The notes beneath the pieces are model-generated. The model ran no database searches, was not told the origin of the DNA, and was given only the letters and a program-made list of their open reading frames with translations. DNA of 64,000 nt, taken from NCBI GenBank assembly GCA_037176725.1, contig JAZBRS010000013.1, positions 10,667,001 to 10,731,000 on the forward strand, written 5' to 3'. Positions 37,505 through 62,945 of this stretch are shown piece by piece. The position numbers were made by a program, and so were the translations under genes. The stretch is from Posidonia oceanica (taxonomy: Eukaryota; Streptophyta; Magnoliopsida; Alismatales; Posidoniaceae). Every line of letters begins with the position of its first letter. Within the stretch, counting starts at the first letter, position 1.

Positions 37505-37511
37505 TATAAAA
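37505..37511 (+). promoter_or_regulatory. TATA box of the antisense PMD-type gene
   Basis: TATAAAA within CTTATAAAAGCCTGGCC, 104 bases from the T of the box to the ATG at 37609, a spacing normal for a plant gene with a short 5' UTR. It lies on the strand opposite to the gag-pol of element B. Confidence 0.6.
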
Positions 37512-39123: not shown

Positions 39124-39250
39124 GTAAGCCGCTCAAACTGGCACTTATAACGTAAGACAAGTGTTATCGTGCATCCAATATTCCTGTGTCAACCGTTATA
39201 CGCTTCAGATAGTGCGTCCAACGTTGAACGCTGACATTTGCTCGTTTAAT
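39124..39250. repeat. Double-hairpin loci H5 and H6, downstream of the PMD-type gene
   Basis: H5 (39124-39179): GTAAGCCGC / ACTTATAAC and GTAAGACAA / GCATCCAAT, decayed. H6 (39195-39250): GTTATACGC / GCGTCCAAC and GTTGAACGC / TCGTTTAAT. Loops are 10 bases; the loci are 15 bases apart, mirroring the close pair H3/H4 on the other side of the gene. Confidence 0.65.
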
Positions 39251-40599: not shown

Positions 40600-41730
40600 G
40601 TAGTACCTCTTGAAGTGCAGTGCATTCCAGGGATATTCAAGCCTAGTGCCATCCTCTCTGGCCAAACAATACGCATTGCCCGGATATGCCTCAACCACCA
40701 AGTATGGTCCTTCCCAATTCGGTCTCAGTTTCCCATGCTTACGAGGAAGGATTTCTTTAAGCACTCATTCACCAATATTGAATTTATGTTCAATTACTTT
40801 CTTCTTATATGCTCTTGCGAGTCGTTCTTGGTAGAGGCGGGCATGCTCAGCTGCTTGCAACCGCTTCTCATCTAGCAGATCCAACCGTAGATTTAATAAT
40901 TGCCTCTTATCCTCGGCAGTTATCTCATCGTCGAGTTATACCCTAGATGAGGGGACCATGACCTCAAATAGGACTACTATCTCCATACCATAAGTAAGCG
41001 CAAACGAGGTTTGGCCCATAGGCGTTCTTATGGAGGTTCAATAGGCCCATAAGGTATCAATTAGCTTATCTGTCTAGTCATGTCCCTTGGTTCCTCCTAC
41101 CGTTTTCTTAAGGATTCGGATTAACGTTTTATTAGTAGCTTCGGCTTGCCCATTACCCTAGGGGTAATATGGCGATGAATGATGTAATTCAATCTTAAAC
41201 TTCTTACAGAGCTTTTTGAAGTCTTGGGATACAAAGATTGCACCATTGTCTACTACTAATTTCTTTGGGAGCCCGAACCTTGAGAGGATATTTTTCCGCA
41301 CGAACTTGCAAAGATTTGAAGCTTTGATTTCAATGAAGGCTTCTGCTTCAGCCCATTTAGTGAAGTATTCAGTGGCTGTGAGTATGAACCTATTCTGCTT
41401 TTCGGTGTCAAATGATCCTACGACATCAAATGCCCACATGGAGAAGGGCCACACCATTTGAGTCGGATTTAACTTTGATGCTAGTGCACGTATTCTATCT
41501 GCATGGATCTAGCACTACCTGCACCTTCTCACCTTGTTTGCGCAATCTGCCTCCATTGTGGGCCAGTAGTACCCTCTGCACAATATCATTTTTGCCATGA
41601 ATTGGGAACTGATGTGTCCTCCACATATGCCTTCATGCATTTCTCCAGTGATAACCTCAACCTCCTCGTAAGTGACGCAGCGCAGCTCTATTCCACTGAA
41701 AGACCTTTTGAAAAGGATCCCGACTCTCAT
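40600..41730 (-). pseudogene. Integrase of element B (INT), frame broken, DDE residues present
   Basis: The zinc module begins with HEGICGGHISSQFMAK (about 41640-41595). The core has AFDVVGSF (about 41440), VVDNGAIFVS (about 41255) and GQAEATNKT (about 41145), so all three catalytic acids are visible. An in-frame TAG precedes GNGQAEA at 41158-41160, and further stops follow in the C-terminal part, which is recognisable to about 40650 (KLRPNWEGPYLV). It is in the same frame as the second RNase H upstream. No chromodomain. Confidence 0.88.
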
Positions 41731-41979
41731 GAAGTATCTTGTGGCCATCCTCCGAACTGCCTCTTTGTCTTGTGAAGTTGCGTAGTCGGGGAAGATCCCA
41801 TCTTGAATGTAGTTCTGGATGTCAAAGAACCATGGGTTCCCATCATCCTCCATGTTGTAGCAAACTTCAAATGTGGCTACCTTTGATTCCCCAGCTTTCT
41901 GTCTAAGCTCCACGGCCCATGGCTCAGTTGAGTCAATGGCAGGTATCCCGTTTTGTTGTACCATTATTGTTTGCTCCCA

Positions 41980-42410
41980 GACATTGATGGGGAACTCAAT
42001 TGAGGAAGCCAGTGAAGCAAGAGCATCTGCTAGTAGGTTATGACTCCGGAGGGTGTGGACATACACCACTTGCTGAAATCGCGCCAATAGGAGGCGTGCA
42101 ATGCCTTTGTATTCTTCTAGCCTTGGGTTGAGGATTCTATACTTGTTCAGAATTTGTCTTAGAACCAGTTGGGAGTCTCCGATGAGTTTCAACCTCTTTG
42201 CCCCTAGCTCCAGCACTAGGCGTAATCCGAGGATCAAGGCCTCGTATTCTGCAACATTGTTGGTATTTGCAGCGAAGTTTAGCTATACAGCTCGAGGAAT
42301 GAGAACTCCTTCCAGAGTGAGAAGTGCTACTTCGATGCGTACGCCTTGTCTGTTGAGTGCTCCATCAAAGTAGAGAATCCATTGTCGAGTGGGAGACTCG
42401 GTAGCTTGTA
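41980..42410 (-). pseudogene. Second (archaeal-type) RNase H domain of element B
   Basis: Motifs WILYFDGALNRQG, then (after an in-frame TAG near 42283) NNVAEYEALILGLRLVLELG, KLIGDSQLVLRQI and LLADALASLAS. These give the Asp-Glu-Asp-Asp set of an RNase H. Its position between the RT-linked RNase H and integrase places element B in the Tat group. Confidence 0.87.
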
Positions 42411-42479
42411 TTTCCAGTATTTCCTCATTAGGGAAGTCTGTTCGAACTAATTGATAATCTTCAATTGGTAATTCTGCCA

Positions 42480-42990
42480 GGTGATCTGCAACGGCTTGCC
42501 CCTTGACTACTTTCTGAGATACATATTGCAGGTCGAATTCAGTGAGGAGGAGTTGCCACCTTGCCAATCTTCCAGAGAGGGCTGCCTTCTCGAACATGTA
42601 TTTGATTGGATCCATCTTGGCAATGTAACAGACTTTATGGACTAGAAAGTAGTGTCTCAGCTTTTGAGATGCCCATACCAAGGCCAAGCAGTGCTTTTCT
42701 ATGGCCGTATACTTCTCTTCATAATCCAGGAAAGTTCTACTCAGGTAGTAGATAGCTTTTTCCTTCTTTCATCCTCATCATGTTGAGTTAGCACTACCCC
42801 TATTGATGATGCAATGACTGCCACATAGAGTAGCAAAGGCTTCCCTGACATAGGTACTGACAAGACTGGAGGGTTCATGAGGTATGCTTTGAGCTCATCA
42901 AAAGCTTTCTGGCATTTCTCATCCTAGGTAAATTCCCTCCCTCCTTTCAATAACTCATAAAATGGCTTACATCGATCTACGTGTTGTGAG
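42480..42990 (-). pseudogene. RT-linked RNase H of element B
   Basis: Blocks resembling PVLSVPMSGKPLLLYV, GVVLTQHDEDE, then the open ALVWASQKLRHYFLVHKV and DPIKYMFEKAALSGRLARWQ with FDLQYVSQKVVKGQAVADHL. Several stops and a frame change separate it from the RT part. Confidence 0.78.
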
Positions 42991-42999
42991 ATAAATCTT

Positions 43000-43760
43000 C
43001 TGATGAACTATAAGCGGCTGATAAGTCCTCTAAGTTCCTTGATATTTCGGGGCAAAGGCATCTGTGCTATTGCTCTAGCCTTCTGTGGGTCCACCTCAAT
43101 TCCTCTTTTGCTGATGATGAAGCCTAGTAGCTTCCCGGCAGTTACCCCAAACACGCACTTCTTTGGATTCATTTTTAGCTGATATTGCCTCGCCCTGCTC
43201 AGTACTCTTCATAGCGCCTCAAAGTGTGCCTCCCTTGTTCTTGATTTGACCAAGATATCGTCAACGTACACTTCCATGCAATCGTGCATCATGTCGTGGA
43301 AGATGACCATCATTGCTCTCTAATATGTTGCGCCAGCGTTCTTGAGACCGAATGGCATGACTACATAGCAGTATGTCCCTCATGGCGTGATGAACGACGT
43401 CTTCTCTTGGTCCTCCTCTGCTAGTTTAATCTGGTTGTAACCGGAGAAGCCGTCCATGAAAGATAGCATCTCAAATCCAGCTGTATTGTCCACTAGCAAG
43501 TCAATATGTGGCAAAGGGAAGTCGTCCTTGGGACAGGCGGCGTTGAGGTTGCGATAGTCAATGCAAACCCGAACCTTCTTGTCCTTTTTGGCCACTGGTA
43601 CTATATTTGAGACCCAACTGGGGTACACAACCACCCTGATGAACTTTACTTTATAGAGCTTGTCAATTTCCTCTTTCACTTCGAGGGCGAGTTCCGGCCT
43701 TAATCGCCTTAACTTCTGCTTGACGGGTTTGGCTCCAGAGTTTAGCGGAAGCAAGTGTTC
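43000..43760 (-). pseudogene. Reverse transcriptase of element B (RT)
   Basis: The open part to 43380 carries KPVKQKLRRLRPELALEVKE, IVPVAKKDKKVRVCIDYRNL, CPKDDFPLPHIDLLVDN and MDGFSGYNQIKLAEED. After an in-frame TGA it continues with VMPFGLKNAGATY, a stop where Gln is expected (TAG for CAG), YVDD at 43268-43257 and GKLLGFIISKRGIEVD. Most stops fit C-to-T decay. Confidence 0.9.
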
Positions 43761-44393
43761 CACTAGAGCTGATTGTAGACCAGGCATATCCTCGTACTTG
43801 AAGGCCAGCACATCCACAAATTCTTTCAAGATTTGGATCATTTCCTCCCGTTCTTTTGGACTCAAACTTGCACTTATGAGTATTGGTTTTGGCTCCTCGG
43901 TGGTTCCCAGATTGATCTCCATGGTCTCTTCTTCAGCTGCCTTGGTTTGCTCATCATAATTGTCCATAAGGTGCTTAAGGAGGTCCGAGTCGGCTTGTTG
44001 ATCTTCTTCCTCGTCACTACAGCTAACTAGTTCATATGCCTCCATTCCTGCACACTTCCCAAACCGGTCAAATACTTCTACTAGGAAGACCATGTTAGCA
44101 GTAGCCAACTCCTGAGGCATTGCCTCCGTGTATTGACACACGCGCACAGTTTTGGAAGCGATGGTCGAAGTTGACCGCGAGCTGCTAGAACTAACATGGT
44201 GATCCTCTCCCTTATTGAAAACAGAAAGTAAATTACTTTTATTCCTAGAAAATGAAAACAATGCAGAATTAAATAAAGTTTTATTTACAGCATCTAGGGG
44301 GATGTCCCTAGAGTTACCTCCATCAGTAGAGGTAGGAGCCTTTCTAGGCGGATTTGTCATGGTCGATGTTCCCATCATCTTCGAGAAGCTCAT
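43761..44393 (-). pseudogene. Pre-RT segment of element B
   Basis: Frame starting at 44393, in a different phase from the upstream protease/G-patch frame. Contains a Ser-rich part, TANMVFLVEVFDRFG, an acidic EEDQQAD stretch, and LISASLSPKEREEMIQILKE with FVDVLAFKYEDMPGL, the conserved block before RT. Equivalent to 17441-16446 of element C. Confidence 0.75.
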
Positions 44394-45330
44394 GGTCTAC
44401 CCCTGAATCCGGGTCAACTTCAGGCCTTTGAGGCTGTAGACCTTCAAGGAGATTAGCCGTGAAGCGGCGAACCCTGTCTACGAGTTGTTGCAACTTGCGT
44501 AGAGTTTGCCCCAGCCTTTGCTCCAAAAAGGAAGAGATGTCCGGAGCTAGAAGAGGCGGAGGCTTGGAAGTAGCAGTGCCGGAAGAAGAGGGAGAAGAAG
44601 AAAGAGGTGGCCGGTCCGGAGGTTCGGGGGCCGGTGCGCCTAACAGTGGTGGCAGTGATGTTGCAGTCTGACCTTTGTCAGGCTCTGCTGGCAACTCTAC
44701 TGTAGTCTGACCTACATGAGGCTCTACTGCTACAGTCTGGCCTTCGTGAGGCTCTACTGTCAACTCCCTTGCAGTCTAACCTTCGTGTGGCTCTGCTGGC
44801 AATTCAAGTGTTTGGAATAAGCCGGAAATGTTTACGTCGGCTGTGTCCTCTGCACTTTGGAGAGTGTGTTTGGTTGATTGCGCCAAAATGATATTTCCCA
44901 AGGGGGATGAATTCGGATCGAAGATCCCTACACTGGTAAAATGTCCTTGTAGATCCCACTGTAATGGTCGTCCGTCGGGAAACTGGTCGAAACCGAGTCC
45001 TCCCCTTCCTTCTCTGTCACAGGCCTTTACTGGCTCCTTCATCCCCTTTCCTTCTGGGCCTAAGCCCCGACCTTCCTTGTAGCCAATTCTCCTCATGATC
45101 TCCCATCCCACATTCATGGAGGATTTTCTGCTTTTTGAGGGTTCCTTCTTCTTGTGAAATAGCCTAGGCTTGGCCCACTTGTCTCTCAGCTCGACCATAG
45201 ATACTATGTTCTTGTCCTTTTCGACGCGGGTCAACTTTTCTCGCACACTGAACTGGTGTGGCAGGTATATCACATTTGCCTCTACTTCTTGGCCCGGTAT
45301 GTCCCCTGCTATCTTAATGATTTTCCCATT
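44344..45330 (-). pseudogene. G-patch and Pro-rich linker of element B
   Basis: The G-patch near 45118-45030 reads GWEIMRRIGYKEGRGLGPEG, much better kept than in element C, followed by GGLGFDQFPDGRPLQWD. Then comes a stop, and a Pro/Ser/Glu-rich segment with repeated VEPHEGQTVAVEPHVGQT-like units (44763-44690). Same frame as the protease. Confidence 0.75.
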
Positions 45331-45740
45331 GTGAAGGAATTTCAGGCATTGGTGCCGAGAAGATGATACTCCTTTTAAATTGTCCAGCCATTGTCTCCCC
45401 AGGATGATCTGATATGGGACATTTATGTCTATGACAATTAGTTGGGTTAGAACCTGGGTTGGTCCTATCCCTATCTTTGTGGTCCACTTGCCGTGTGCTT
45501 TTCTTTTGCTGTCATTATACCCAGCAATCATCATATCAATGGGGGTCAAGGAAGCCTCATTTATGCCTAAGGCTCGTATTGTATTTAACGAGCAAATGTT
45601 CATTGATGCACCAGCATCTATGAGCACTTCAGAAATTAAGTGATTGTTTATAGAGATGGTTACATTCAATGGTGTTTTTCTCCTCTCTATTGGTGCTAAC
45701 TCGCTATTAGCAAACGTAATAATAGGTTCTACAAAGGCCG
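45331..45740 (-). pseudogene. Aspartic protease domain PR2 of element B
   Basis: Retropepsin-like: LNVTISINNHLISEVLIDAG with active-site DAGAS near 45620-45605, SLNTIRALGINEASL, and YQIILGRQWLDNL near 45410-45380 with SSSRHQCLKF. Family members usually have D-x-G-A/S, so the active site looks complete. It lies just before the G-patch, the normal place for the protease in this group. See also the second domain upstream. Confidence 0.85.
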
Positions 45741-46399
45741 TTGTAGCTATAACATGGAGTTCCTCCGTTGGCATATCTGGAGCAACTTGGGCCTTCTCTA
45801 GCACTTCCTGCAGAGCTTTCCGGTGTTGAATCGAGTTGTTTATGAGGTCATAGATTGAGATCCTGGCCTGTGTCTTCTTTAATTACTCTAGCATGTCATA
45901 TTCTACTGACCCGGGTCCTTCTTGAGGTCTGACCGGCTCTGTTTGCTCTGCTGGTGGTACAATTCGGTTTGACAGCCTCCCTCCTTTGGTGATGGGCGCA
46001 GCAGCCTCATTTTCTTTGCATAGGTCGCTGGATGCTCCCTTCTTGAGCGGCCAGGCGAAGATGGACTCCCTTCGTATAGGTCCGCCAAGCTCTGGTGGCT
46101 TTGTGGCCCTAGCTAGTTGCTTTGTTGGCACTCAGAAGATTGGGGATGACGGAGTAGTAGTGTTCCGAAATACTGAAGTGTTGAGGGCCGGCAACTGACT
46201 TGACGATGGCCTAGCTACTCTAAAGATTGGGGAGACCGGTGGTGACAGCGGCTTGGGAGCCCACAGTGATGATTTTCTCCACGGCAGACGTTGTGACTCC
46301 TCCTTTTCCCAAAGGGTTGCAATTTGTGGCTTGGGCATCTTGAATGTGCCTAGAATCCCCGGTCGATTAACAGGAATGCTAATGACCGCTCCTTGGTTT

Positions 46400-46760
46400 T
46401 TGAATTTTAGCATTTGATGAACTGAAGATGCTACGGCCCTGACCTCTACTAGCCAAGACCTCCCTAGGATGAGTGGTTCCGGGACTTCTTCCTTCATAAT
46501 GATCACCAAAGTGATACTGGTCAAAGGACTGACTGTGATTTCCATGGGCATTGTCCCTAGTGCCAATTTCTCCTTCTGATTAAACCCGGTGCACATAAAG
46601 GGGGTTCTATATAGCTCATCTTCATTTAGCCCTAAGCTCCGGAGTGTGGAGAGAGAACTGAGGCTTCAGCTCGCTCTAGTGTCAACTAGTACTCCTTGCA
46701 GCACATGGTCATTGATGCCCACTGTGATGACAAGCGGCAGCTCTTGCTTATGTGGGGGTG
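46400..46760 (-). pseudogene. Additional protease-like domain PR1 of element B
   Basis: Same layout as PR2 about 1 kb upstream in the same frame: LVITVGINDHVLQGVLVD, then DTRAS where DTGAS would be expected (46685-46670), an in-frame stop, STLRSLGLNEDEL, and PEPLILGRSWLVEVRAVASS with HQMLKF. The Gly-to-Arg change and the stop make it inactive. Two protease-like domains in one element suggest an internal duplication or a recombinant element. Confidence 0.75.
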
Positions 46761-47179
46761 GAAGCTCCGAATCTTTGAAGACTATATTTTCTCGTTCAAA
46801 TCGCTGATTGGCTTTTTGAACTTTGCTTTCTTCCTTCATATCGTCTTGTGGTCCCTCCATTACTGCTGTGAGGTTGAATTGGCTAAGGAGATCTTTCATT
46901 GTTAGCCCCTCGTTTGCCTCGCTGCTCCAGTCATCATCTGAGATTATTCCCTAATGATCAGCTTGGTTGTCCCAGTTCACTTCAGGTATGGCATGGTTGT
47001 CCCAGTCTTTTGATGTTAGCGGATTAGGGAGCTGTTCGTCCTGGAATGCCATGACTTGGTGCTTGGGGAGAGGATCACTGTAGACCTGCTGAGACGTCCC
47101 CGTCTGTTTCCTCTGTTTGGCTCTTTTTACCAGGACGTCCCATTCAAATACATCTGCCTCTACCATGTCATAGACTATG
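46761..47179 (-). pseudogene. Gag-protease junction of element B
   Basis: Frame continuous with PR1: MVEADVFEWDVLVKRAKQRK, Asp/Asn/Trp-rich segments, one stop near 46951, then GLTMKDLLSQFNLTAVMEG. No enzymatic motif; typical spacer after the gag zinc motif. Confidence 0.65.
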
Positions 47180-48978
47180 TCTCTGAAAGTCCATTAGTCA
47201 TTGATGTTGTGACCATGTACTCTATGGAACGGGCAGTATTTGCTCTGGTCACAATTTTACAATTCAGGCCTAGCTGGGGGGAGTTCAATTGCTTTTGCAT
47301 CCTCTAGCTCTATGAACATATCTGCCAGTGTGACCGGTAGAGGAGGGTAATGGCCTCTTCTTCCCGGTTTGCGTGGCAATAGTTGTGGAAGGGGAACATT
47401 GTGCTAATCGCCTCCGTTCCCACTATTGTTGTGGGGATTTCTGGTGTTGGCCTGGTTATTTTGATTGCCCCTGGTCCATTACTGCCGGGGAGTATTCCAC
47501 ATAAGGCGGATTTGCTACTGAGGGGGAGGGTTATTCCATGCCTGCTGTTGCTGAGGAGGGCGGCTCTATTCTTGCTGTTGATGGGGAGGAGGGTGGCTCC
47601 ATGCTTGTTGTTGCTAAGGAAGAGGGCTCCCGGTTGGCTGTTGTGAAGGAGGGTGGCTCCAGGTTGGCTATTGTGAAGCTTTCTTCGGATGGCCTAGGTG
47701 CGGAGCCCATCATGTTGACGACTCCGGTCACGCCCTCTATTACCTGTGTTTTCCAGCTCTTCTTGGGCTCCTCCATGAATTCATGCAGATTTTCTTTAAC
47801 GGAGGCTACCACTTCATACAAGGCTGTTACATTGGGACAGTAGGCATTCACGAGTCCTTTTTTATTAGTCTAGTGGTGTTTGCAATGAAGGTTTGGACCA
47901 TCTATCTCTCCGGAATGGTCAGTCCTGATCTGGCCGCCATTTCCCACCATCTGTTAGCGAATGTCACCCAGCTTTCGCCTTGCTTCATGACCTCCTTGCT
48001 TAGGTCGTGGAAGGTTGGCTTGGGGTCTATGTTGTGCTGGTATTTTGTGAGGAAGCTCTCTCTGATTTTATCAAAGCTACTGAGGTCTTCCTTGGAGAGA
48101 GTGAGAAACCAATCCATGGGCTCTCCTTCAAGCGAGTAGAAGAACAGGTGTACAACAAGCCCCAAGTCATGGAAGTAGGGGGCTGACTCCATTTGGAACC
48201 ACACTAGGTGACTGAGTGGGTTAGTGGTTCCGTTGAACTTGGGAGTCTTCGGGTACTTGAAGCCCGGGGGTAATCTGAATGGGGGAAACTGGCTCATATC
48301 AAAGTTTACCGGAGCTTGGGTATGTACCCCTAATACGCTGAGCATTTTTCTCATCTCATCCAAATTTGTTATCTCGGCTGATGGGGTCGGGACATGTGAG
48401 TTGAAGGACTGATGGTTCTGTTGCTGATGAAGATAGCTATTGCAGAAGTGTTGAGGTGCGACCTGCTCGTATCGCAGGGAAAATGCCTGATGGTGGTGAT
48501 GATCTAGCTGAGGCTGATTGCTTGCCGTTGGTGGTTGGAGATGATGTCTTGGGTACCCATGGGGCGGATAGACTCCTTCCTTGTACTCGCCATGTGGCAT
48601 GTGATTTTGTTCCTGAATCAAGGGGTTGGCCCTTGAGTTATAAGCTTCGTTGAGCACTGTACCGTGACCTGGGTGGTTTGTATCCGGCGATGGGTTGCCA
48701 TTTTGTCCCTGATATAAATCGTCAGGGGTATGGTCCGCAACTGGCCTTCGTTGTCCTTCACCGAGGTGGGGTGACTGTTGGAGGTTATTCTAACATGGCC
48801 CCACAGGGGTTGATGTCTCTTCGTTTAAGAACTGGTACATGGCTTTATACTGGATCGAGTCTGGATCCAAGGTTTCTCCGATGATCGGATGGTAGATTGT
48901 GGGCTCCTCTCCTGAGGTACTTACTAAGTCTAACCCTTCTCTTTCTAGCTGTTCAGTTTCAAAGATTATGTTAATCAT
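47180..48978 (-). pseudogene. Gag of element B
   Basis: One minus-strand frame from the ATG at 48978 (MINIIFETEQLEREGLD) with an in-frame TAG at 48790-48792. A His/Gln/Pro-rich part follows, then RLPPGFKYPKTPKFNGTTNP, the retrotransposon-gag core with YSLEGEPMDWFLTLSKEDL and SFLTKYQHN, a Pro/Ser-rich repeat segment (47851-47531), and a zinc-type CPFHRVHGHNIND near 47235-47195 whose last Cys position is a stop. Several later stops. Confidence 0.83.
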
Positions 48979-49019: not shown

Positions 49020-49076
49020 GTAATACGCCTCAGAATGCGGCATACAACGTTGGACGCAGTAAACTGCACGTTCAAC
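49020..49076. repeat. Double-hairpin locus H7 (57 bp)
   Basis: GTAATACGC / GCATACAAC and GTTGGACGC / ACGTTCAAC, loops of 11 and 10 bases. It lies just before the gag start on the minus strand. Confidence 0.7.
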
Positions 49077-49445: not shown

Positions 49446-49501
49446 GTTAGACGCGGTATCGTCAGCGTCCAACGTTAGGCACAGAGATTTCAGCGTCTAA
49501 C
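49446..49501. repeat. Double-hairpin locus H8 (56 bp)
   Basis: GTTAGACGC / GCGTCCAAC and GTTAGGCAC / GCGTCTAAC, 10-base loops, in the leader of element B. Confidence 0.8.
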
Positions 49502-50207: not shown

Positions 50208-50263
50208 GTTGGACGTGTATATTGGAGCGTCCAATGTTGGACGCGCCAGACTACGCGTATAAC
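50208..50263. repeat. Double-hairpin locus H9 (56 bp)
   Basis: GTTGGACGT / GCGTCCAAT and GTTGGACGC / GCGTATAAC, 10-base loops, about 290 bases from the LTR of element B. Confidence 0.8.
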
Positions 50264-51382
50264 GTACTAACAATGTCTTTTTTCAGAAAAACAGTAATTT
50301 TTACAGATCACCCCCATGCCTGAGAATCCAGAGAGAAGGGGGAGGTGATTTCAGTTATTCAAATGTAGAAAACAAACGAAAAAGATCACGATGCCTCAAA
50401 ACACTACGAGGAATTTCGCCGCTTCTTTAAAACATACGAGAAATTAAGAAACTAAAACTAAGAATGTCAATTATGAGGAGGAAGAAGAAAGAAGGGCTTA
50501 CTCACCTTGCACAGCGGCACTTTTAGCCGTCCCACCATGATCGCCAAACTGTGGATATAGGATTTTGGGAGGAGGAGGATTTCGAGAGGAGAAGGAGGCT
50601 TCGTCTCTCCCTTTTTGTTGCTATTCGCTCCTTCTTGGGGTCCTCTTTTGTTGTATCCGACTTCTTCACTCCACGTGTGTTGAAGTCAGTGTAATTGCCA
50701 CTCTCAGTTTGCTTTCGCTGGCCCTCGAGACGCTTTGGGGAGATGTGATATGGTTGCGGGTTCAGCTACCTTAGGACAACGCCAGCGTTGCCCAAGGGTA
50801 CCCGTGCTTGGTGAATTTCTTCTTCTTTCTTCTTCCTCCTCGTATGACAAATGTTAGCAAACAAAAATAATGCAAAGATGGATCAATATAGTGTAGTAAC
50901 TTATTCAGAATAAATAGAAAAATGGAGAAACGCAATGAAATACGTACCCGAGGGGTTTGATCCCCCCGGTTGCAACTGATGAAAATGTATGCTTAGCTAC
51001 AACAATATATGAACTCAATAGCTTGATTATGCTATGGAATTAAATATGTCGTATGAGAAAAAGAAAAGAAAAGAAAAGAAAACAATAAATAGAGTCCCCT
51101 TTTATCTATGCACGAAGTGCAAGACATGTCGACATGATGCCACTGACGATAAAGGGAAGCTCAAGCTCTTTCAAAGACTCTCCACCTTTCAAAATTTCTC
51201 TTCACTATTTCAATTCTCAAGGACCTCACTTCTCTCTAAAAATCTTTTTAATCCCAAAAAACCATGTGAGCTCCAAAAATTAGGCCCTTAACCCTGTGGA
51301 GGTACCTCTGCTTTTATAGAAGCAAGAGAGGAACAAAAAAGGACACAAAGGCCAAGTCAGCAGAATTTTCTGTTTCAGAAGT

Positions 51383-51438
51383 GTTATACGCTGGAAAAGT
51401 AGTGTATAACATTATAAGCAGGAGTTCCAACGTATAAC
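51383..51438. repeat. Double-hairpin locus H10 (56 bp)
   Basis: GTTATACGC / GTGTATAAC and ATTATAAGC / ACGTATAAC. Allelic to H1 in the other LTR, with substitutions (GCGT to GTGT, CGTT to CATT) that fit C-to-T or G-to-A decay. Confidence 0.8.
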
Positions 51439-51610
51439 GACCTCCAAGACATAACTGCCAGGATAAAGGAATATTCCCCAATTAAGGAGTCATTAAGTGT
51501 GTTTAACTCAACTTTGATTGCTTTGACTGGTCAACAGGCTCCAAAGAAGGCAAAAAACGAATTTTGGATTTGGCCAAATAAAGAAAGTTTTGGGTAGACT
51601 AGGTTGCCAC

Positions 51611-51675
51611 GTTGGATGCTGGAAAACCAGCGGCCAATGTTAGTCGCTGGAAAACCAGTGGCCAACGTTGTACGC
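51611..51675. repeat. Hairpin locus H11 (two units plus half)
   Basis: GTTGGATGC / GCGGCCAAT, GTTAGTCGC / GTGGCCAAC, then a lone GTTGTACGC arm cut by the 214-bp duplication joint. It starts 172 bases after H10, as H2 does after H1. Confidence 0.75.
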
Positions 51676-51824
51676 TGAGAAGGAATATTCCCCAATTAAG
51701 GAGTCATTAAGTGTGTTTAACTCAACTTTGATTGCTTTGACCGGTCAACAGGCTCCAAAGAAGGCAAAAAACGAATTTTGGATTTGGCCAAATAAAGAAA
51801 GTTTTGGGCAGACTAGGTTGCCAC

Positions 51825-51908
51825 GTTAGATGCTGGAAAACCAGCGGCCAATGTTAGTCGCTGGAAAACCAATGGCCAACGTTGTACGCTGAGAAGTCAG
51901 CGTACAAC
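51825..51908. repeat. Triple-hairpin locus H12 (84 bp)
   Basis: GTTAGATGC / GCGGCCAAT, GTTAGTCGC / ATGGCCAAC and GTTGTACGC / GCGTACAAC, three units of 28 bases. The last stem is perfect with GT/AC in place of GG/CC. Confidence 0.8.
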
Positions 51909-52120
51909 ACCCTCAGTCAATTCAATTTCCAAATTTGGTCAAGACATGAAGAACATTCAAGTTGCCGACACTTGGGGCTTAGATAGGGATAACATTTTGG
52001 ACCAGAAAGAAGACGTTTGGCTCAAGTAAGGCGTCCTGGATTGGGCAAAGGGCTTCTAAGAACAACCTAATGCAATAGACTATACTAACATGAAGGGAGT
52101 GCCAAAACGGGATATCTACA

Positions 52121-53656: not shown

Positions 53657-53924
53657 TGTAGACACCCCATTTCGACAGGCTGTAAGTTGGTGGATTTCAT
53701 TGGAAGCTTGCTCAAGTTCGCAGCCTGATAAACCTGACAAACCATTTCCAAAACCCACCCCAAATCCAACCTAAACCTTGACCTAGACCTAGACCTTGAT
53801 CCCTTTAAAACCCACCCAAAACCTCCTAAAACTACCTAAACCAGTCCCATTCCCTATCTTGGTCCTAAACAAGCCTTAACCTAAGCCATAATTCCCAAAA
53901 ATAGCCATGATACACCTTTGGGAC

Positions 53925-54011
53925 GTTGGACGCTGGCTAAAGCAACGTCCAACATTGGACGCTGTCTGTGCTAGCGTCTAACGTTAGATGCTGCACCGGT
54001 GAACGTCCAAC
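53925..54011. repeat. Triple-hairpin locus H13 (87 bp)
   Basis: GTTGGACGC / ACGTCCAAC, ATTGGACGC / GCGTCTAAC and GTTAGATGC / ACGTCCAAC, each with an 11-base loop; three units of 29 bases. Confidence 0.85.
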
Positions 54012-54350
54012 ATGTCGGGGAAGCCAGCACCCTTTGGCAGTCCATCGCCGCGCCTAGAGCTGCCCTCCGCCACTCCCTGCAACCCCACGACCTCACGTCC
54101 ACTCCCCACTTACTACCCACTCCCTCCAAGCACTAAAAACAAGCCCCACTTACTACCCATCCTCTCCGGCCTACCACCTCCCACCTTCGCCAACCAACTA
54201 GCCTCTCACAACCTCCTCCACCGCCTTGCCGCTCCTGCCACCTGCAGACCTAACACCACTTACTCCTCTGCCATCCCTGACATGCCCACACCCCCAGCTA
54301 TGGCTCCAACACTCTCAGCACCTCGCTTGCCACCTCTGCAACTCCGGTGA
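54012..54350 (+). CDS. Proline-rich ORF in the LTR of A (112 codons), hypothetical
   Basis: ATG directly after hairpin locus H13, Pro/Ser/Leu/Thr-rich, ends TGA at 54348-54350, about 200 bases before the donor-like site at 54558. Same relative place as the longer frames in LTRs C, D and F but with little visible similarity. Weak evidence of coding. Confidence 0.25.
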   Translation: MSGKPAPFGSPSPRLELPSATPCNPTTSRPLPTYYPLPPSTKNKPHLLPILSGLPPPTFANQLASHNLLHRLAAPATCRPNTTYSSAIPDMPTPPAMAPTLSAPRLPPLQLR

Positions 54351-55002
54351 ACAAAAAGAGAACCCATCATCCATTTTCACACCACCACACCCATTTTGCT
54401 GAAAATTGAGAACTCCCCCGAGCTTAGAGCGATTCCCAGAGTGCTTCCCCACCTGTGAGCAAGCCTCCCGAACCCTCTCCCAAGCTCAGGCCGCCCTCTG
54501 AAGCTCACCGTCCACCTTCGCCGGCCAATCGTGGGACACCAATCCGGGCTGCAACAGGTAATTTTTTCTATATCCTTAACTTAAGTGTGCATGTAGTAGT
54601 GTAGTGGTTTACTTTTTGCAAGCTTTCCACCATGTACATAGCCCCACCTCCTAGCTCACCAGAGTCCGGTGATGGGTTCACTGCCCGCACGAGGTCGCCA
54701 ACCTGTGAGTGTGTGGCTACCTCCCTCGTGGACCCCATAACTTGCTTAAGGTCTGCGAACACTTCCCTCGCCCTCACGAAGCTTCACAGCTGGTTGTCAT
54801 GGCTCACCGGCCTCATAGATGGCCGGAGAAGACATGGAAACCGGTGGCGAGAGGGAGGAGGTGGGTGGAGCAATCCACTCACCCAATTTTGTCACCAAGC
54901 ATATGTTTAGATTCGTCTTTACTTGCTCTTGCTTCCTAGCTATCTAGTTTGCCATTTTCAATCGATTTGGACGCTGTTTTTGGCCGGGAAAGACCCCGAC
55001 TT

Positions 55003-56189
55003 GTTAGATGCACAACCTGGTGCGTCTATCGTTGGACGTGTCCTGTGACAGTGTCCAATGCCCCTGCTTCCTTTCCTTTGCTGATTCTCTTGATGATTTG
55101 GTTTGATGAGTTTGCTGAAATGTTTTGATGTCATGTATGCTTTCCTTCATACTTTTGATGCCATGTTTTAAATAATAATGTTTTTGGTGTGGTTTTCCTT
55201 CCGTATTTTCATGGTAGCTTGCCTCTATGTTGGACACTGGGTGAGGTAGCGTTCTATGTTATACGCAGGCCACCTTGCGTCTTACGTTCCTGTATGTTTG
55301 CTTGACTTTAATAACTGCTTAAAGCCATTTTGCTTGATTGTTTGTTTGATCCAGGCATGCATGTTGGTACATGGGTCTTCTTTCAGTCATTCGCAGATTC
55401 ATGCAATGCTTTTTCATCAAGTTTGCATGCTAAGTTTTGCGCCTCTGCTTCTCTGCGTTGGACACTGAGTTCTCTAGCGTTTTATGTAAAATGCTGGCTA
55501 CTCAAGCATTCAACAACCTGCTTTGGCTTGAACTAGTTTTATGCTTGTATCTTGTCCTTTAAATCTTCTTAGCTTCTCATCTAGCTTGTATAGCATGATC
55601 TGCATGTCTTCCTGTTATCATATTGCATTTGCATCACGTTTACACATTCAGTATTGATGCATACCTTTCAAAATCCAAGTCTAGGTGTTGGACGCTGGTG
55701 TTCCCAGCGTCCAACGTTAGACGCTACTAATACCAGCATTTAACACCATCTGCTTGTTTAAAACAGATTTGTCGCTTGCATTCGATTTCTGGGCTGTTGC
55801 TTTAATCTCTCGGCATGGTTTTATCTGTCCCTAGCTTTTACATGGCATTAAAGTCTTTGTTTTCCAAACATGCATCCTTTCTTGCAATGCAGCTGACTCT
55901 CTGTGTTGGACGCTGTGGTAACCTGCTTCCTATGTTGGACGCAGATGTTGCCAGCGTTCAACACTCTGAGTCTGTGACTCCTTGATTTTGTGCCCACTCT
56001 TGGTTTTTATGCTTCGATTGCTTTTGTCCTGACTGTTTGGCTTGCTCTACCTTGCCCATGTTTTTATTTTGATATCAATATCATGTTTTATCAACTGTGC
56101 ATGCATGTTCTGCAGGTTTCATGTCCTCTGTGTAGGACGCTGGGTTTCCCAGCGTCTTACGTTGGACGTTGGTTATCCCAGCGTCCAAC
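55003..56189. repeat. Array of six double-hairpin loci H14-H19 at about 226-bp pitch
   Basis: Starts at 55003, 55229, 55457, 55687, 55906 and 56132 (steps 226, 228, 230, 219, 226). Each locus is 57-58 bp: two stems with 9-base arms and 10-11-base loops. Spacers are 169, 171, 172, 161 and 168 bases, with little sequence likeness by eye. Best example H17: GTTGGACGC / GCGTCCAAC then GTTAGACGC / GCATTTAAC; H19: GTAGGACGC / GCGTCTTAC then GTTGGACGT / GCGTCCAAC. Confidence 0.88.
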
Positions 56190-56353
56190 ACTTCAAGTTT
56201 GCTGCAGTTTGTTTCTTTGTGCTGTTTCTGATTTGAACCTCATTTCTTGGATCTGTTTGCTCCTAGGGCATGTTTTGGCACCCTAGCACATAGTTTAATA
56301 GTGGTTTTCAGATTTTGCGCCTTAGTCGTGTTTTCCCGACCTGTTTTCGCCTT

Positions 56354-59300
56354 TGTAGTAATCCCGGTGTTCAGATCGTCCATGCACACTGCCAAAAGCT
56401 CACGTGCACCAATCGGAATTAGGTTCACTATAAGCGACTATGTCCGAGGAGGAAGGCTCAACTCGAAAACACTTGAAACAGAGGAGAAAAGATAAGAAAA
56501 GAAGAAGATAAGACAATTCAGAGTCGCCACCGTGTCTATTATCGGGAGACAAGGAAAATCGGGGAAATGCGTGGATTAACACGCAAAACCAAGCAAAGGA
56601 TGCAAAGGAAAACAAATGCAAATGAATGCAAATGATATGACTCATGCCTAGGATAAGGGCAATATGGTCATTACAGGCCAAAAGACTGGGCAAGGACTCC
56701 TGTTACGTGCGGGGAAGGTGTTAGGCACCCCCGACACGCCCGAGAATCGGTCTTTCTAGGCTTACGCTCGCATACACAGGGAAATGCAGATTTGAATGCC
56801 TAAGTGCCAATGAATACCTAAATGGATGCTCAAAGGTGTGCTCTAAGTGATGGGATGCAATACAGGGAAGTAAACGTGTAGTCTAAGTGCTCAGCAACGC
56901 TGTCTGTGTTCCGAACCAATCGAAACCTGGTTCATGAGAACTCCAGGAAGTAAGCATCACTGCCCTATATGCAAATGCAAGCGGAAAAGCAAAACGACAG
57001 TAAAATCAAGCAATACGAGCGACATGCAAGAGAAAACAGCATAAATCACGCAAAACAATGCGAGAAACGGGAGCGGCACGCGAAACGGTGCAAGAAAACA
57101 AGATCGGCATGCAAAACGATGCAGAAAACAAAGCAGCACGCAAAACGGTGTAAGAAACAGAAGCAACACACGAAACGGTGCAAGAAACAAGAGCGACACG
57201 CGAAACGGTGCGAGAAACAAAGTCAGCATGCAAAACGGTGCGAGAAAACAAAGCCAGCACTTAAAATGGTGCAAGAAACAGAAGCGGCACGCGAAACGGT
57301 GCAAGAAACAAGAACGGTACACGCAACGGTGCCAAAAGCGAAGTGGACACGCAAAACGGTACCAAAGCAAGCGAAATAAATAATCGATAAAGCCATGCAG
57401 ATGCAGGTGTAAAGAGGAAGAGCAAAAGAAGCAAAGGGGAGGCAAACGATGCAAGTGTAAGGACAAGCGTCGCTTAAAGACCACGCAATGTAGGTGTGAA
57501 GACCTACAAAGGGGAAGGGAAGCAAGTGGGAGGATTACCACTGTTCTGTGACCATTTCCCACCAAAGTGTCCCACGATGTGTCTCGCATGCTGCCAAAAG
57601 CTCGCGATGCAATCGGATCGTGGAAAAGGGGGAAGAAAGTCGCAATTAGTAGTGAATCCAGGGAAAACGCAACACAAGGCACTGAGAGTACGCGAAAAAA
57701 GGAGACAGAGTTGATAGATAGGAAGAGGGAGTCCTAATCTACATGCTCAAGAAAGCGGGAAGCAAAAACAATGCATGCAATGCAAATGATGTGCAAATGT
57801 ATGCTGTGCAGGGGTTCAGATGGACTTACCTTGGAAATCTGAAGCCTGATCTGAGAAATGTTTGGTCCATGTGGAAGAGCGCTCCACCGGGGTCGTCCAG
57901 GTAGCTTGGTTGAGAAGATCCGGCAGCCAGATCAGAAGATATGCTGGCTTCAAGGCAGAGGGGCCAGAACAAGGGAGAAAAATGGATCTAAGTGTAAAGG
58001 AGGTCCTAGGGGTGTGCAAAACAGGTCCTCTCATGTAAATGGGAGCTAAGTGTGTGCAAAAATGCCAAATGCAAATATGCATGGGTGCAATACATGCAAA
58101 AATGCAAGAGAAGGACCTAAGAATAACTTTTCAGAAAACTTAGGGACCTATATGCAATTTTTGAAAAAGTTAAGGACTAAATGCAAGAATTTTGAAAAGC
58201 TAGGGGCTTATATGCAAGGTTTTTGAAAACTTGGGGGTTTGAGTGCAATTTTACAAAATGCAGGGTTTAAAATGCAATTTAATAAGGTAAACATGCATTT
58301 AAATAAGTTTTGAAATCATGTGGAGGACTAATGTGCAATTTGAAAACATGCAGGGGTTGAAATGCAATTTTATAAGGTAAAACTATGATTTTAAATGGTC
58401 TGTGAATTAATCAGTGGACTTATGTGCAATTTTTAAATATGTAGGGTCTAAAATGCAATTTTATAAGCAAAAGTATGCATTTAAATGAGTTTTCTAAACA
58501 TGCAGAGGACCTATATGTAATTTTAAAACATGCAGGGTCTAAAATGCAATTTTATAAGGTAAAATGTTGAAAAACAAATGCTGTGCATGCAAATGGAGGA
58601 CCTATGTGCAAAAATCAGAAAACATGGAGGAGAAATGCAATGCAGTAAGAAAAGATGGAAAATAAATGCTTAAATCAACAGATCAGAGGACTAAAACGTA
58701 AATAAAATAAAAGACAGGATTAAAATGCAATTTACTAAGGTAAAATCAGAGTATTAAATGAGATTAACAACCAAAGGACTGAAATGCAAAAATAAAAAGC
58801 CACAGGACTGAAAAATAAAGAAGAAAATCTATGTTTGAACTACTGCAAGACTAATAAGTAAATAAAATAAACAGCTGGACTAGAAAGTAAATGCACAGAA
58901 ACTTAAATGAACTGAGAATGGACTGGAATGTAAATAAAATAAATAACTGGACTGAATGTAAAGCAAAATAAATAAACTATAACAGTAGAGGACTGGAAAG
59001 CAAATAAAATAACATGCTGGGGCTGAACTAAAATAATCTAAAAGGAAAACACAATAGGAGGACTAACTAGCAATTAATCAGATTTTTAGGTTTTTTATGC
59101 AATTTCATATGATTTAAATTCAAACTTAAATGAATCTTAAACGATGGCAGGACTGGAAAGTAATAAAGCAAAAACAGAAGGCGAAAATGCAATATTTGGC
59201 AACATTTGCTAACTAAGAGGAAATAAGTGCACAGTAAAATCACAGCAGCCATGGTCATTGTAGCAGTTGCTACCAGTGACCATGAATGGAGGAGGAGGGC

Positions 59301-62300
59301 AGTTAGAGCAGCGCTGATGCAGCGGCGGCCTTCACCGAAGCCAGACGAAGACCGGAGAGGTATCGGCGAGCCATGACGCTGCCTGGAGATGACCGGAGAG
59401 CTGGACAGAGGTCTGCAGACCTTCCGGAGGTCAACCGGAGAGCTGGAGCGACGTCGGAGCATTCTGAATGCAGAGGCGTGCTCCTGGAGTTCGTGCGGTC
59501 CTCAGGCGACGCTCAAAACGGAGTTCTACTGGCTGGTGCGGCAGATCAGAGCTGGAGCTCGCCGGAGAAGACGATGGAGCGACGGCGTTGACTCGGCGAT
59601 AGAAGGGGGGAAACCCTATTCTAAAGGCCAGAAAAGCAAGAGGGAATGAAAACTAGCCTAGAGGGAAGGAGCAATACCTGTTTCGCTGGCTGAGGAGTCC
59701 TCCCGACGCAGGTGGTTTCAGTGGATGCCGGCGAGGTTCGTCCAGCTGAAGGAGGGGACATCGACGGCTCGGGAAGGCTAGAATCTTCTCAGTGGAGTCC
59801 TCCGGAGCTTCCTAAACAGCTGGAGCAAAGCTTCGACGACCGGAGGAGGAATCGGCTTCTGTTGGGTACACAGAAGATGCCGGAGGTGGGGAGAGCTGTT
59901 CACTGTCCTCTGGATCAATTGGAGGGTGCCGGCGAGCTCCTGGTTGCTCAGTGAAGGTGTAGGGATGCTTGGAAGGGCTGGTGGAGGGCTGGAGAAGAAG
60001 ATTGGTGCTGGGGGGATTTCTGGACAGAAAAGGTTGCAGGTGTTTGAAGTGGAAGGCTCCGGCTGTGGTGGTAATGAAGGCTGAGGCTCAGGTGGTCTAG
60101 GGAGCAGGTGATTCAGGGAGTTGCTGGGTGGATTTTGGAGGGATTCGGTGGTCAGGGGAGATGGGAATTCTGAGGAGAGTGGAGTTGGGTTGCTGTTTTG
60201 AAAATGGAGGAGTTGGAGGATGGTTTCAGGGTGATTCTGGCTGTGGAAGGGAGGGCTGAATTGCTGGAAGTTTGATCGAGATTGGGGGGTGAAATGGGAG
60301 TGATTCGGATGGAGATGGAGGCTCTGGTTTCGGATGGAATGAAGGAGGAAGAGAAGCTCAATTTTTTCAGAGGAAGAGGGGGAGAATTGGGTGGCTTCAG
60401 CTGCTCTCAGGGCTCTCTCTCTTGGACGACGAAAAAAGACAGTGAAGGAGGAGATTGAAGCTGGTTTTAAACGGGGGGCTGGAATGGAACGAGCGTGCAG
60501 TGGATTTTGAAAATCCACCAGCACGGGCTGCAGCTAACGGAGTGAAGGACGACCGGCGAAGAGACTGACAATTAATGCCCCGAAAGTCCCGCAGAGAGAA
60601 GAGAGAGGAGGAGGATGAGCTGGTGTCGATGTGATCGAGAGGGAAGAGGAAATTGAATTTGAAGAGGAGAGGGAGTTGGCTAGCGCGGGAAGAAGAGGAA
60701 GCTGTCTGAAGAAGAAGAAGAAGAAGGAGGAGGAGGAGGAGGGAAGGAGAGCGGCTATGGGCCGGGCTACGCGGAGGAAAAGAAAAAAAGAAAGAAAGAA
60801 AAGAAGGAAGGAGGGGGAGAAGGGCCTGATGGGCCGGACCAAAGGAAAAGAAATAAAAAAAGAAAGGAAGAAGAGGAAAGGAAGAATAGGAAGAAGAAGA
60901 AAATTAAAATAAAAAAATAAAAATAGAAAATAAAGATTTGAAAATGTTTTTAAGGTAGTTGTTTAAGTTATGTTTTTTAATTAGGTTTTTAATGGTTGTT
61001 TTTAATTGGTTAATTAGGGTTAGAAATAGTTTTAGTTTTGATTTGAGTTTTTAGGGTTTAAGTTTTCTTTAAATTGTTTTTTGATTTTGTTTAAAGGTTT
61101 GTTAAGTTTTTAAATTGTTTTTAGTTAGGTTTTTCTTATTAAGTTTTTCTTGTTAGGTTGGGATTTTTAATTAGGATTTTTTAATGGGTTACTTTTTAAT
61201 TAGTTAGGATGAGTTTTGGTTTTTAGATTTTAGTCTTTTCTTAAGTCTTCTTTGATTTGTTTTTAATTTTGTTTGTTAAGTTCTTTTAATATTTTTTAGT
61301 TAAGTTTTTCTTGTTAAGTTTTTAATTAAGTGTTTTTTTAAAATTTTTGATTGTTTCTTTTTCCTTTTTAATTAAGTTTTCAAATTGTTTCTTTTAGATT
61401 TGTTTAGTTAGGTTTTTTCCCTTAGTTAGTTGTCTTAGCATCTTTAATTGTTTTCTCTCTTCTTAGGATTTGTTTTTTTTTATTATTTTTAAAAGGGTTT
61501 TTACTTTTGGTTTGTTTTGATTATATTTTGGTTTTTGCTTGATTTTATAGTATTTCCTTTTTGTTAGTTTTGTATTTTTTAGCTTGCATTCTTAGTTTTT
61601 AGTTTTAATAGGATTTAGTTAGATTTTTGTTTTTTAATTGTTTGTTTAAGTTTTTTAATTATTTCTTTTTAGGATTTTGATTAGTTTTTATTTTATTTTT
61701 TTTAGTGTTATAAAGGTTTTTTGAGGGTTTAGTGGAAGAAAGGGAAAGAAAAGAAAGAGAAAGAAGAAAAGGGAGAAATAAGGGAGTAAAGAAGAAAAGG
61801 GGAGTGGAAGGAAAGTAAATATTAAAAAATCAAGGAATAAGCTAAAAATAAAATAAAAATATAAATAAGATACAGAAGAGATAGATGCATAGGGTGGGCC
61901 CACAGCCAAGCAAGAAGAAGAGAGAGAAGGGAGTGAAAAGAAGGAGAATAATTAGGAGAGAGACAAGAGAGAAAAAAGAATAATCCAGGAGAGAGAAAAG
62001 GATAATTTGAAGAAATGAAGGGGTTAGAGGTTTAGAAAAGAGATGAAATTCGGGGAGTGTGTGGCCTAGAGTCTCTAGTGTTGGACCTAAGGTTTGGGTT
62101 TGGATTTTGGAAGGTTTTGGAAGGGTTTTGAGGTGTAGAAAAAATGGTAGTTTTACCTAGGTTTTCTAGGGTTTTTAGGAGTGGTTTTGGTTTGAAAATT
62201 TCTAAGGGTTTTTGGTAGGTTTGTTAAGTTGGGGATGGTGAGTTTTTCTACTGTTTTTGGGTAGTTTTTGGGCTTGGGAAGGAGGTGTGATTCTAGGTTA

Positions 62301-62420
62301 AGTTTGGGCTTGTTTTGAAGAGAAGGATGAAAAGGAATGTGTAGGTTTGGACCTAGATTTGGATCCAGAAGCCACTAGAAGATTCCAATTGATTCAGCCT
62401 GTCAAAATGGGGTGTCAACA
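56354..62420 (-). mobile_element. Solo LTR F (6,067 bp)
   Basis: On the minus strand from TGTTGACACCCC at 62420 to GGGATTACTACA at 56354. No internal region attached. Flanks gcctt (56349-56353) and gcctc (62421-62425) agree at four of five bases, a probable target duplication. It contains the conserved U5 block (56707-56765), about ten minisatellite units (57050-57370), a perfect donor-like AAG/GTAAGT (57829-57828), tracts of short ATGCAATTT repeats (58090-58560), a proline-rich frame, and T-rich (60950-61690) and GA-rich (61735-62040) tracts. It belongs to the subfamily of E. Confidence 0.88.
59778..60524 (-). CDS. Proline-rich ORF inside solo LTR F (248 codons), hypothetical
   Basis: Open frame in the sense of the LTR, rich in Pro, Ser, Leu, Asn and Gln, with no domain. 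The C-terminal TLQLIQRTVNSSPHLRHLL aligns with the corresponding part of the frames in C and D. A donor-like AACAG/GTATTG follows at 59677-59676, about 100 bases past the stop. Retained open frame in three diverged LTRs is suggestive, but composition alone reduces stop codons. Confidence 0.35.
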   Translation of the reverse strand: MLVDFQNPLHARSIPAPRLKPASISSFTVFFRRPRERALRAAEATQFSPSSSEKIELLFLLHSIRNQSLHLHPNHSHFTPQSRSNFQQFSPPFHSQNHPETILQLLHFQNSNPTPLSSEFPSPLTTESLQNPPSNSLNHLLPRPPEPQPSLPPQPEPSTSNTCNLFCPEIPPAPIFFSSPPPALPSIPTPSLSNQELAGTLQLIQRTVNSSPHLRHLLCTQQKPIPPPVVEALLQLFRKLRRTPLRRF

Positions 62421-62945
62421 GCCTCCTTGCAGTATTTTGAACTTTAGTTAATCGCTTTTGAATAAGGTTTGCTAAGCTCTGCATGGTTTATAATTGCATA
62501 TTGCATACCGCCTTAGGGCGAACATAAACCAGCGTTTCACGCCAACATTTACCACATAATAGCGGATCAGTTAAGAAAGACCGATTCCTCGGGCATGTCG
62601 GGGGTGCCTAACACCTTTCCCGTACGTAACTAGAATTCTTACCATTTCTCTGGACCGCATTGACTCTGTGTCACACATTTGGATTGAATTTTGCATGCTT
62701 TTAAAATGCATAGATTTTATTTGCATGTTCCTTATACGGCTTTCCTAGTTTTTCCGTTTTAAAAAATTAGGTGGCAACTCCTTGTCTTTTCTTTTGTTTT
62801 CCTTTTGCGTTCGTCTCTGCTTTTTTTGATGTTTTCGAGTCGAATATCCCTCCTCGAATCCACCCGCTTATAGTGGCCTATTATCGGTGGGTGCACGCGA
62901 GCTTTGGCATCGTGCATGGACGCGCCGATTTTTAGGGTTACTACA

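What the first reader, a model, noticed from the sequence alone, without database searches (positions are those of the whole stretch)
53925..56189. Family of double and triple hairpins with fixed geometry, recurring in two unrelated LTRs and inside element B
At 19 loci (H1-H19) the same plan recurs: 9-base arm, 10-11-base loop, complementary 9-base arm, then directly a second such unit, sometimes a third. Total length is 56-58 or 84-87 bp. The consensus stem is GTTGGACGC / GCGTCCAAC, so the joint between units reads AACGTT and is itself palindromic. Length and joint are kept while bases vary. Loci lie in the LTR of A (H13-H19), both LTRs of B, the leader of B and both flanks of the antisense gene. 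I know of no described element with this plan. Candidates are protein-binding arrays (two dyads about one helical turn apart), RNA structure in the LTR transcript, or a mobile hairpin.
Basis: seen in the sequence. Interest (0 to 1): 0.92.

Follow-up and report, generated by a model that had tools for sequence, protein, structure and literature searches.

The report
Paired palindromic boxes in plant retrotransposons
Two plant retrotransposons carry the same paired mirror-image DNA boxes, some of them just ahead of gene switches; they look like docking sites for an unknown regulatory protein and resemble boxes described in another class of plant retrotransposon.

Summary
A profile scan finds 40 units of 28-29 bp in 19 loci: 17 doublets, 2 triplets, no singletons. 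Shuffles give 0.5 units. A consensus-free geometry search finds 7 against 0.55.

The loci lie in non-coding parts of two LTR retrotransposons: A's long LTR, B's LTRs and leader, and both flanks of B's antisense PMD gene. A third element, C, has none.

Pairing is not the main thing kept. An arm matches its own partner no better than neighbouring arms, sense-strand G.U does not exceed A.C, and gene-flank copies barely fold. The half-site GTT[A/G][G/T]ACGC is kept: in A's 227-bp array arms stay alike while loops reach shuffle level, and CpG survives in doublets, not in spacers. In B, 15 of 25 units lie upstream of TATA boxes.

Best reading: inverted DNA half-sites for an unidentified regulatory protein. 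They work like, but are not, the palindromic RM boxes of Sirevirus LTRs (PMC2829016). RNA structure remains possible for B's LTR and leader. Protein and genome-wide spread are untested; the own-genome search did not complete.

The parts
53657..62945 (+). 3' LTR of element A (TGTAGACACCCC...GGTTACTACA), interrupted by a solo minus LTR at 56354-62420
   Evidence: LTR termini and interruption; BLAST map
53925..54011 (.). triplet of 29-bp palindromic units in A's LTR
55003..56189 (.). six doublets (55003-55059, 55229-55285, 55457-55514, 55687-55744, 55905-55962, 56132-56189), start-to-start 226, 228, 230, 218, 227 bp
50552..52120 (-). 5' LTR of element B; target-site duplication GAGGA (2009-2013) / AAGGA (52121-52125) around B, one mismatch
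51383..51438 (.). doublet in B's 5' LTR, 65-120 bp upstream of the TATA box
51611..51666 (.). doublet in B's 5' LTR (inside the first copy of a 214-bp tandem duplication)
51825..51908 (.). triplet in B's 5' LTR
51312..51318 (-). TATA-box match of B's 5' LTR (CTATAAAAGC), also present in the other LTR at 2773
2014..3121 (-). truncated 3' LTR of B (94% to 50550-51665)
2838..2893 (.). doublet in B's 3' LTR
3066..3121 (.). doublet in B's 3' LTR, 228 bp from the previous one (start to start)
50208..50263 (.). doublet in B's leader
49446..49501 (.). doublet in B's leader
49020..49076 (.). doublet in B's leader near gag
41515..48789 (-). gag-pol remains of B: protease and G-patch, RVT_1, RT_RNaseH, RVT_3, integrase zinc finger
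37683..38954 (+). antisense PMD-domain ORFs of B (PF10536, E 1.7e-6, below the curated cut-off)
37505..37511 (+). TATA-box match ahead of the antisense gene (CTTATAAAAGCC)
37262..37317 (.). doublet upstream of the antisense gene
37338..37393 (.). doublet upstream of the antisense gene, 112-167 bp before TATA
39124..39179 (.). doublet downstream of the antisense gene (weakest)
39195..39250 (.). doublet downstream of the antisense gene

Best explanation
Shown: 40 copies of a 9-bp inverted half-site pair (GTT[A/G][G/T]ACGC, facing copies 10 or 11 bp apart), always as 2 or 3 abutting pairs, in the non-coding DNA of two LTR retrotransposons, B and A (B Tat-type by its pol). By place: 15 units upstream of a TATA match (11 in B's two LTRs, 4 ahead of the antisense gene), 6 in B's leader, 4 behind the antisense gene, 15 in A's LTR, where no TATA was found. 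Inferred: each doublet is a composite DNA-binding site (four half-sites in fixed register) for a dimeric or tetrameric regulatory protein. The arrays put the element's RNA and its accessory gene under one regulator, as an enhancer, a silencer or an anti-silencing site. Stems and loops would follow from the dyad symmetry and not be the working part.
For: Half-site sequence more than partner pairing is conserved: own 6.47, across the joint 6.50, outer pair 6.39, first arms 6.78 and second arms 5.89 of 9; permutation P 0.19 on 34 non-redundant units. In A's array arms are 67-83% identical between doublets while loops (0.648) equal shuffled loops (0.650), and spacers keep only weak similarity, mean z 2.9. 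CpG: 19 in 346 bp of doublets against 8 in 841 bp of spacers, Fisher P 1e-5 (which counted separators too: 352 and 845), as if kept against methylation decay. TATA matches lie on the correct strand 65 bp beyond the nearest doublet in both B LTRs and 112 bp beyond it ahead of the antisense gene. No unit falls in the listed gag-pol or PMD ORFs or in element C. Gene-flank copies keep half-sites but fold poorly. Precedents in print: Sirevirus RM boxes and Tnt1 BII boxes that bind induced factors (passages).
Against: No protein, expression or methylation data. No TATA match in A's LTR, and the same pattern matches 10 more times in B's leader on both strands, so TATA calls are only suggestive. Ten units of B (leader, behind the gene) are not upstream of a promoter match. 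Some pairing signal exists: 9-bp P 0.043 with all 40 units (0.19 without duplicates), 12-bp P 0.007 (0.039 when permuted within elements), and B's 11 LTR and leader units P 0.024 and 0.001. Choosing units by arm match favours arms over loops in any conservation comparison. All data come from one window of one genome.
Confidence: 0.6

Rival explanations
1. Neutral remnant: a short palindromic tandem repeat spread inside these elements by duplication and is now decaying, with no function.
For: Tat-type (Retand) elements are known for tandem repeats (PMC11963269 passages). A's array is a decayed 227-bp tandem repeat and B's LTR has a 214-bp duplication. Short flanks are shared between loci, as expected from copying.
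Against: Under neutrality loops, spacers and CpG would decay with the arms; they do not decay alike. There are no singletons.
Confidence: 0.2
2. RNA structure: the doublets are stem-loops in element RNA, serving packaging, dimerisation, stability or translation.
For: 12 of 19 loci fold with z below -4 against shuffles and one more at -3.2. B's LTR and leader units co-vary (P 0.024 and 0.001). Some doublets fold as one long hairpin.
Against: No significant excess of G.U over A.C on the sense strand (9 bp: 16/8 in A, P 0.15; 10/10 in B). No significant covariation in A or at the gene flanks. Six of 19 loci, among them all four gene-flank loci, fold at z above -1.8. No Rfam match in 48000-56400 (the rest of the window was not searched).
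Confidence: 0.13
3. Mobile hairpin: the doublet itself is a small transposing unit.
For: The same 56-58-bp unit recurs in many places in two elements; right flanks share [A/G]NCC[T/C].
Against: No target duplication was noticed around doublets in the flank listing, not tested formally. None lies in C or in the listed coding ORFs of this window. Loops differ freely in A's array.
Confidence: 0.05

Closest known systems
Sirevirus RM boxes (Ty1/copia; Bousios et al. 2010, PMC2829016, sections 9 and 19 read, passages of the rest)
   Same: Dyad-symmetric repeated motif, many copies per element, in the LTR upstream of TATA, with extra copies ahead of an additional gene; conserved amid diverged flanks; binding protein unknown.
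   Different: Here Ty3/gypsy Tat type (B), no CGG-CCG signature, longer inverted half-sites fixed as abutting doublets, copies also behind the gene and in the leader, no CpG island over the LTR arrays.
VANC target motifs of VANDAL transposons (Hosaka et al. 2017, PMC5735166, passages; Sasaki et al. 2023, PMC10398659, abstract and outline)
   Same: Roughly 9-bp motif that comes in two types, dense arrays in non-coding DNA of the element, evolving through tandem repeats.
   Different: VANC21 motifs lie in one orientation; here they are inverted. No VANC-like protein is known here. Two elements with dissimilar PMD genes share the motif.
Tnt1 BII boxes (PMC3316501, passages)
   Same: LTR boxes that bind induced nuclear factors.
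   Different: A different retrotransposon class (Ty1/copia, recalled); sequence and plan not compared here.
Tandem repeats of the pol-3'LTR region of Retand elements (PMC11963269, passages)
   Same: Related lineage (recalled); antisense ORF in that region.
   Different: Here most units sit in LTR and leader, as doublets and not long arrays.

Membership tests
Sirevirus RM boxes | Palindromic motif with dyad symmetry | tested here: met
Sirevirus RM boxes | At least eight copies per element, abundant in the LTR | tested here: met
   15 units in A's LTR; 7 in B's 5' LTR plus 14 in B's leader and gene flanks
Sirevirus RM boxes | Upstream of the TATA box in the LTR | tested here: inconclusive
   Met in both B LTRs; no TATA match in A's LTR
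Sirevirus RM boxes | Extra copies on the 5' side of the additional gene | tested here: inconclusive
   Four units upstream of the PMD gene, but four behind it as well
Sirevirus RM boxes | CGG-CCG core signature | tested here: not met
   Consensus GTTGGACGC; one published RM, Tnd-1, lacks it too
Sirevirus RM boxes | Clusters form CpG islands | tested here: not met
   LTR arrays O/E 0.55-0.77 at GC 0.42-0.43; A's 87-bp triplet 1.10 and the short gene-flank blocks 1.52-1.57, GC below 0.55
Sirevirus RM boxes | Host element is a Ty1/copia Sirevirus | tested here: not met
   B has RVT_1, RT_RNaseH, RVT_3 and G-patch; Tat assignment from these domains is recalled knowledge
VANC target arrays | Element-encoded protein binds the motif | not testable with these tools
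   no binding data
VANC target arrays | Motifs arrayed in the same orientation | tested here: not met
   Inverted half-sites
VANC target arrays | Concentrated in non-coding DNA | tested here: met
   No unit in the listed gag-pol or PMD ORFs
Tat/Retand pol-3'LTR tandem repeats | Array lies between pol and the 3' LTR | tested here: not met
   Only 8 of 40 units (gene flanks) lie there; the rest are in LTRs or leader

The most novel reading that the evidence does not exclude
The doublets are the target of an element-encoded protein, most simply the PMD protein made from the antisense gene that they flank. That protein would bind the LTR promoter and its own promoter as a self-regulating anti-silencing switch, so that elements sharing the boxes form a regulatory guild across lineages.
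Probability: 0.12. Interest if true: 0.82.

Novelty: new variant of a known kind. Interest (0 to 1): 0.5.

Why it matters
If right, palindromic LTR boxes upstream of TATA are not a Ty1/copia peculiarity: a Ty3/gypsy lineage has its own compound version, shared by two elements with unlike LTR bodies and found at both promoters of one element. That gives a defined 56-bp probe for finding the protein that controls large Ogre/Tat-type elements, and a direct test of whether their antisense PMD gene has a regulatory job.

Tried and rejected
Pairing-driven conservation was rejected as the general rule, with the exceptions told above. The doublet as an ordered pair with distinct first and second units: no signal over 14 doublets (P 0.65). 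A common ~170-bp spacer behind the 228-bp spacing in both A and B: not detectable (z -1.4 to 1.7 over both orientations). A general habit of 29-bp palindromic units in the window's other tandem arrays: not significant (11 of the arrays listed tested, lowest P 0.06). General hairpin coverage is above shuffles in A's LTR (z 4.4), in the 3' non-coding parts of A and C (z 2.5-3.0) and in the mini-LTR (3.0), but not in B's leader (0.1), B's 5' LTR (1.0) or the gene flanks (0.2, -0.5). Half-site types are not independent at positions 4-5: GG and AT are over-represented (34 and 16 against 27.4 and 9.2 of 80 half-sites, duplicates included), unexplained. PMD-motif co-evolution is weakened: the DNA covering A's PMD gene is about 71% identical to C's, B's PMD is barely alignable with C's (39 aa at 33%; no meaningful match), yet A and B share the boxes and C lacks them. 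Searches elsewhere: joint 19-mer absent from IMG/VR and GTDB contigs (prokaryote and viral collections, so little to expect), no RT or protease relative in IMG/VR. Protein searches named a few plants (Gossypium for 1 of 4 hits; Vitis, Trifolium, Lathyrus and others among the 120 listed of 1512; none of 3 named) but no species for the window. The 9-mer GTTGGACGC as text: 94 papers, the 20 listed look unrelated by title. A text search for GGCGTTCAACGCC, a peanut motif that I recalled, found 0 papers.

Full report
Where it is. The window is a nest of large plant LTR retrotransposons. Element A is plus-oriented. Its 3' LTR starts at 53657 after a polypurine tract, ends near 62945, and is interrupted by a solo minus LTR at 56354-62420. 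Element B is minus-oriented and sits in A's 3' non-coding repeats. Its 5' LTR is 50552-52120, its truncated 3' LTR 2014-3121 (94% identical over the shared part), and it is flanked by GAGGA/AAGGA. Element C, with 5.7-kb LTRs near 3289-9030 and 23686-29400, lies within B's span. B's pol has RVT_1, RT_RNaseH, RVT_3 and a G-patch; from recalled knowledge this is the Tat/Ogre branch of Ty3/gypsy. A's pol is outside the window. B also has antisense PMD-domain ORFs at 37683-38954 (E 1.7e-6, below Pfam's cut-off). Named relatives of B's RT among the 120 listed include Vitis, Trifolium, Lathyrus and Rhododendron, so the host is probably a eudicot; the species is unknown.

The observation. The consensus scan gave 35 units against 3.56 in 100 block shuffles. 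The iterated profile gave 40 units with a clear gap to noise: 40 against 0.52 at a score of 12 (trained on the same window). They fall into exactly 19 loci: 17 doublets and 2 triplets, no singletons. The geometry test without consensus gave 7 against 0.55, max 2 of 60 shuffles. By my count, units are 28 bp in B (24 of 25) and 29 bp in A (13 of 15). The joint AACGTT is exact in 9 of 21. None lies in C or in the listed gag-pol and PMD ORFs.

What is conserved. If stems were the selected feature, an arm should match its own partner better than other arms. On 34 non-redundant units (6 duplicate units of B dropped) own pairs score 6.47 of 9, pairs across the joint 6.50, outer pairs 6.39. The permutation P is 0.19 for 9 bp (0.043 with all 40 units) and 0.007 for 12 bp (0.039 when permuted within elements). 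Split by place and with G.U allowed, A's 15 units give P 0.19/0.15 (9/12 bp), B's 11 LTR and leader units P 0.024/0.001, and the 8 gene-flank units P 0.98/0.90. Sense-strand G.U and A.C mismatches over 9 bp are 16/8 in A, 10/10 in B and 4/10 at the gene flanks, no significant bias. So there is some pairing signal in B's LTR and leader and none elsewhere. RNA folding is strong (z below -4) in 12 of 19 loci, some as one long hairpin; z is -3.2 at 3066, -1.2 at 55229, and between -1.74 and +0.53 at the five loci at 37262, 37338, 39124, 39195 and 49020.

Selection on half-sites. A's LTR holds six doublets at start-to-start steps of 226, 228, 230, 218 and 227 bp. Between them arms are 67-83% identical; loops are at the shuffled level (0.648 against 0.650) and spacers have weak residual similarity (mean z 2.9). 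CpG is depleted in spacers (8 found, 31 expected) but nearly as expected in doublets (19 found, 22 expected); 19 in 346 bp against 8 in 841 bp gives Fisher P 1e-5. Sixteen of 24 arms in the array keep a CG. Since units were chosen by arm match, the fair statement is that arms stayed recognisable at all six positions while loops and spacers did not. The half-site reads GTT[A/G][G/T]ACGC. Short flanks are also shared, mostly on the right (information 4.20 right and 2.99 left against 1.36 expected over 16 loci; right flank scores above the turned left flank in 13 of 16).

Position. In both B LTRs a TATA match lies 65 bp from the nearest doublet, on the correct strand. The antisense gene has a TATA match 112 bp after its nearest doublet. 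That puts 15 of 40 units upstream of a TATA match. Six are in B's leader, four behind the antisense gene, and 15 in A's LTR, which has no match. The pattern also matches 10 more times in B's leader, on both strands, so a match alone proves little. The 228-bp step in B's LTRs equals that of A's array, though the spacers do not align; this is unexplained.

Mechanism. I conclude that these are composite inverted binding sites for a regulatory protein acting on DNA, with confidence 0.6. Which protein, and whether it activates, silences or protects from silencing, is not shown. Host PMD proteins MAIN and MAIL1 affect TE silencing, and a promoter motif is enriched among genes that need them (PMC7156037 passages), so the PMD gene is a candidate. 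Against that, A and B share boxes without similar PMD genes, while C, whose PMD region resembles A's, lacks boxes (A's and B's PMD were not compared directly).

Comparison. Sirevirus RM boxes are the closest described thing that I found: palindromic, 8-32 copies, in the LTR upstream of TATA and ahead of ENV. Ours fail on the CGG-CCG signature, the CpG islands and the superfamily, so they are not RM boxes, but they probably work like them. VANC target arrays are a second functional parallel (passages).

Limits. One window, no expression or methylation data, and the host-genome search did not answer in seven tries.

Noticed in passing
52121-53300 and 1713-2013: A's 3' non-coding region is a 90-bp tandem array made of three different short hairpins (CCTG..CCTCgtgcGAGG..CAGG, GCTTG..CAAGC, GACTCCG..CGGAGTC). 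Hairpin coverage is above shuffles (z 2.5 and 2.8); stems seem to change in a compensated way, by eye only.
   Followed up: partly
9545-10510: C's 3' non-coding region has tandem units of 29 and 39 bp with GATAG/CTATC and GATAAG/CTTATC dyads; hairpin coverage z 3.0, the single units not significant.
   Followed up: partly
37230-37393 and 39092-39250: The antisense PMD gene is flanked by two similar modules, each of two doublets (gaps 20 and 15 bp) with shared outer sequence (62.8% over 145 bp), like direct repeats around a gene cassette.
   Followed up: partly
3122-3288 and 23519-23685: The stretch outside C's left LTR repeats C's internal leader next to its right LTR, primer-binding site included (one mismatch), suggesting a rearranged or tandem copy.
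   Followed up: no
23667-23685 and 50520-50551: C's primer-binding site candidate reads GTGGCGACTCCGCTGGGGA; B's candidate, read by eye next to its LTR end, is GTTTGGCGATCATGGTGGGA, so the two elements may use different tRNA primers.
   Followed up: no
36775-37217: A 443-bp mini-LTR with both C-type termini but most of the 5.7-kb LTR body missing.
   Followed up: no
54550-56270: The T-rich part of A's LTR that holds the six doublets starts near AACAG/GTAATT and ends near TCCTAG/GG, so it may be a leader intron (by eye).
   Followed up: no
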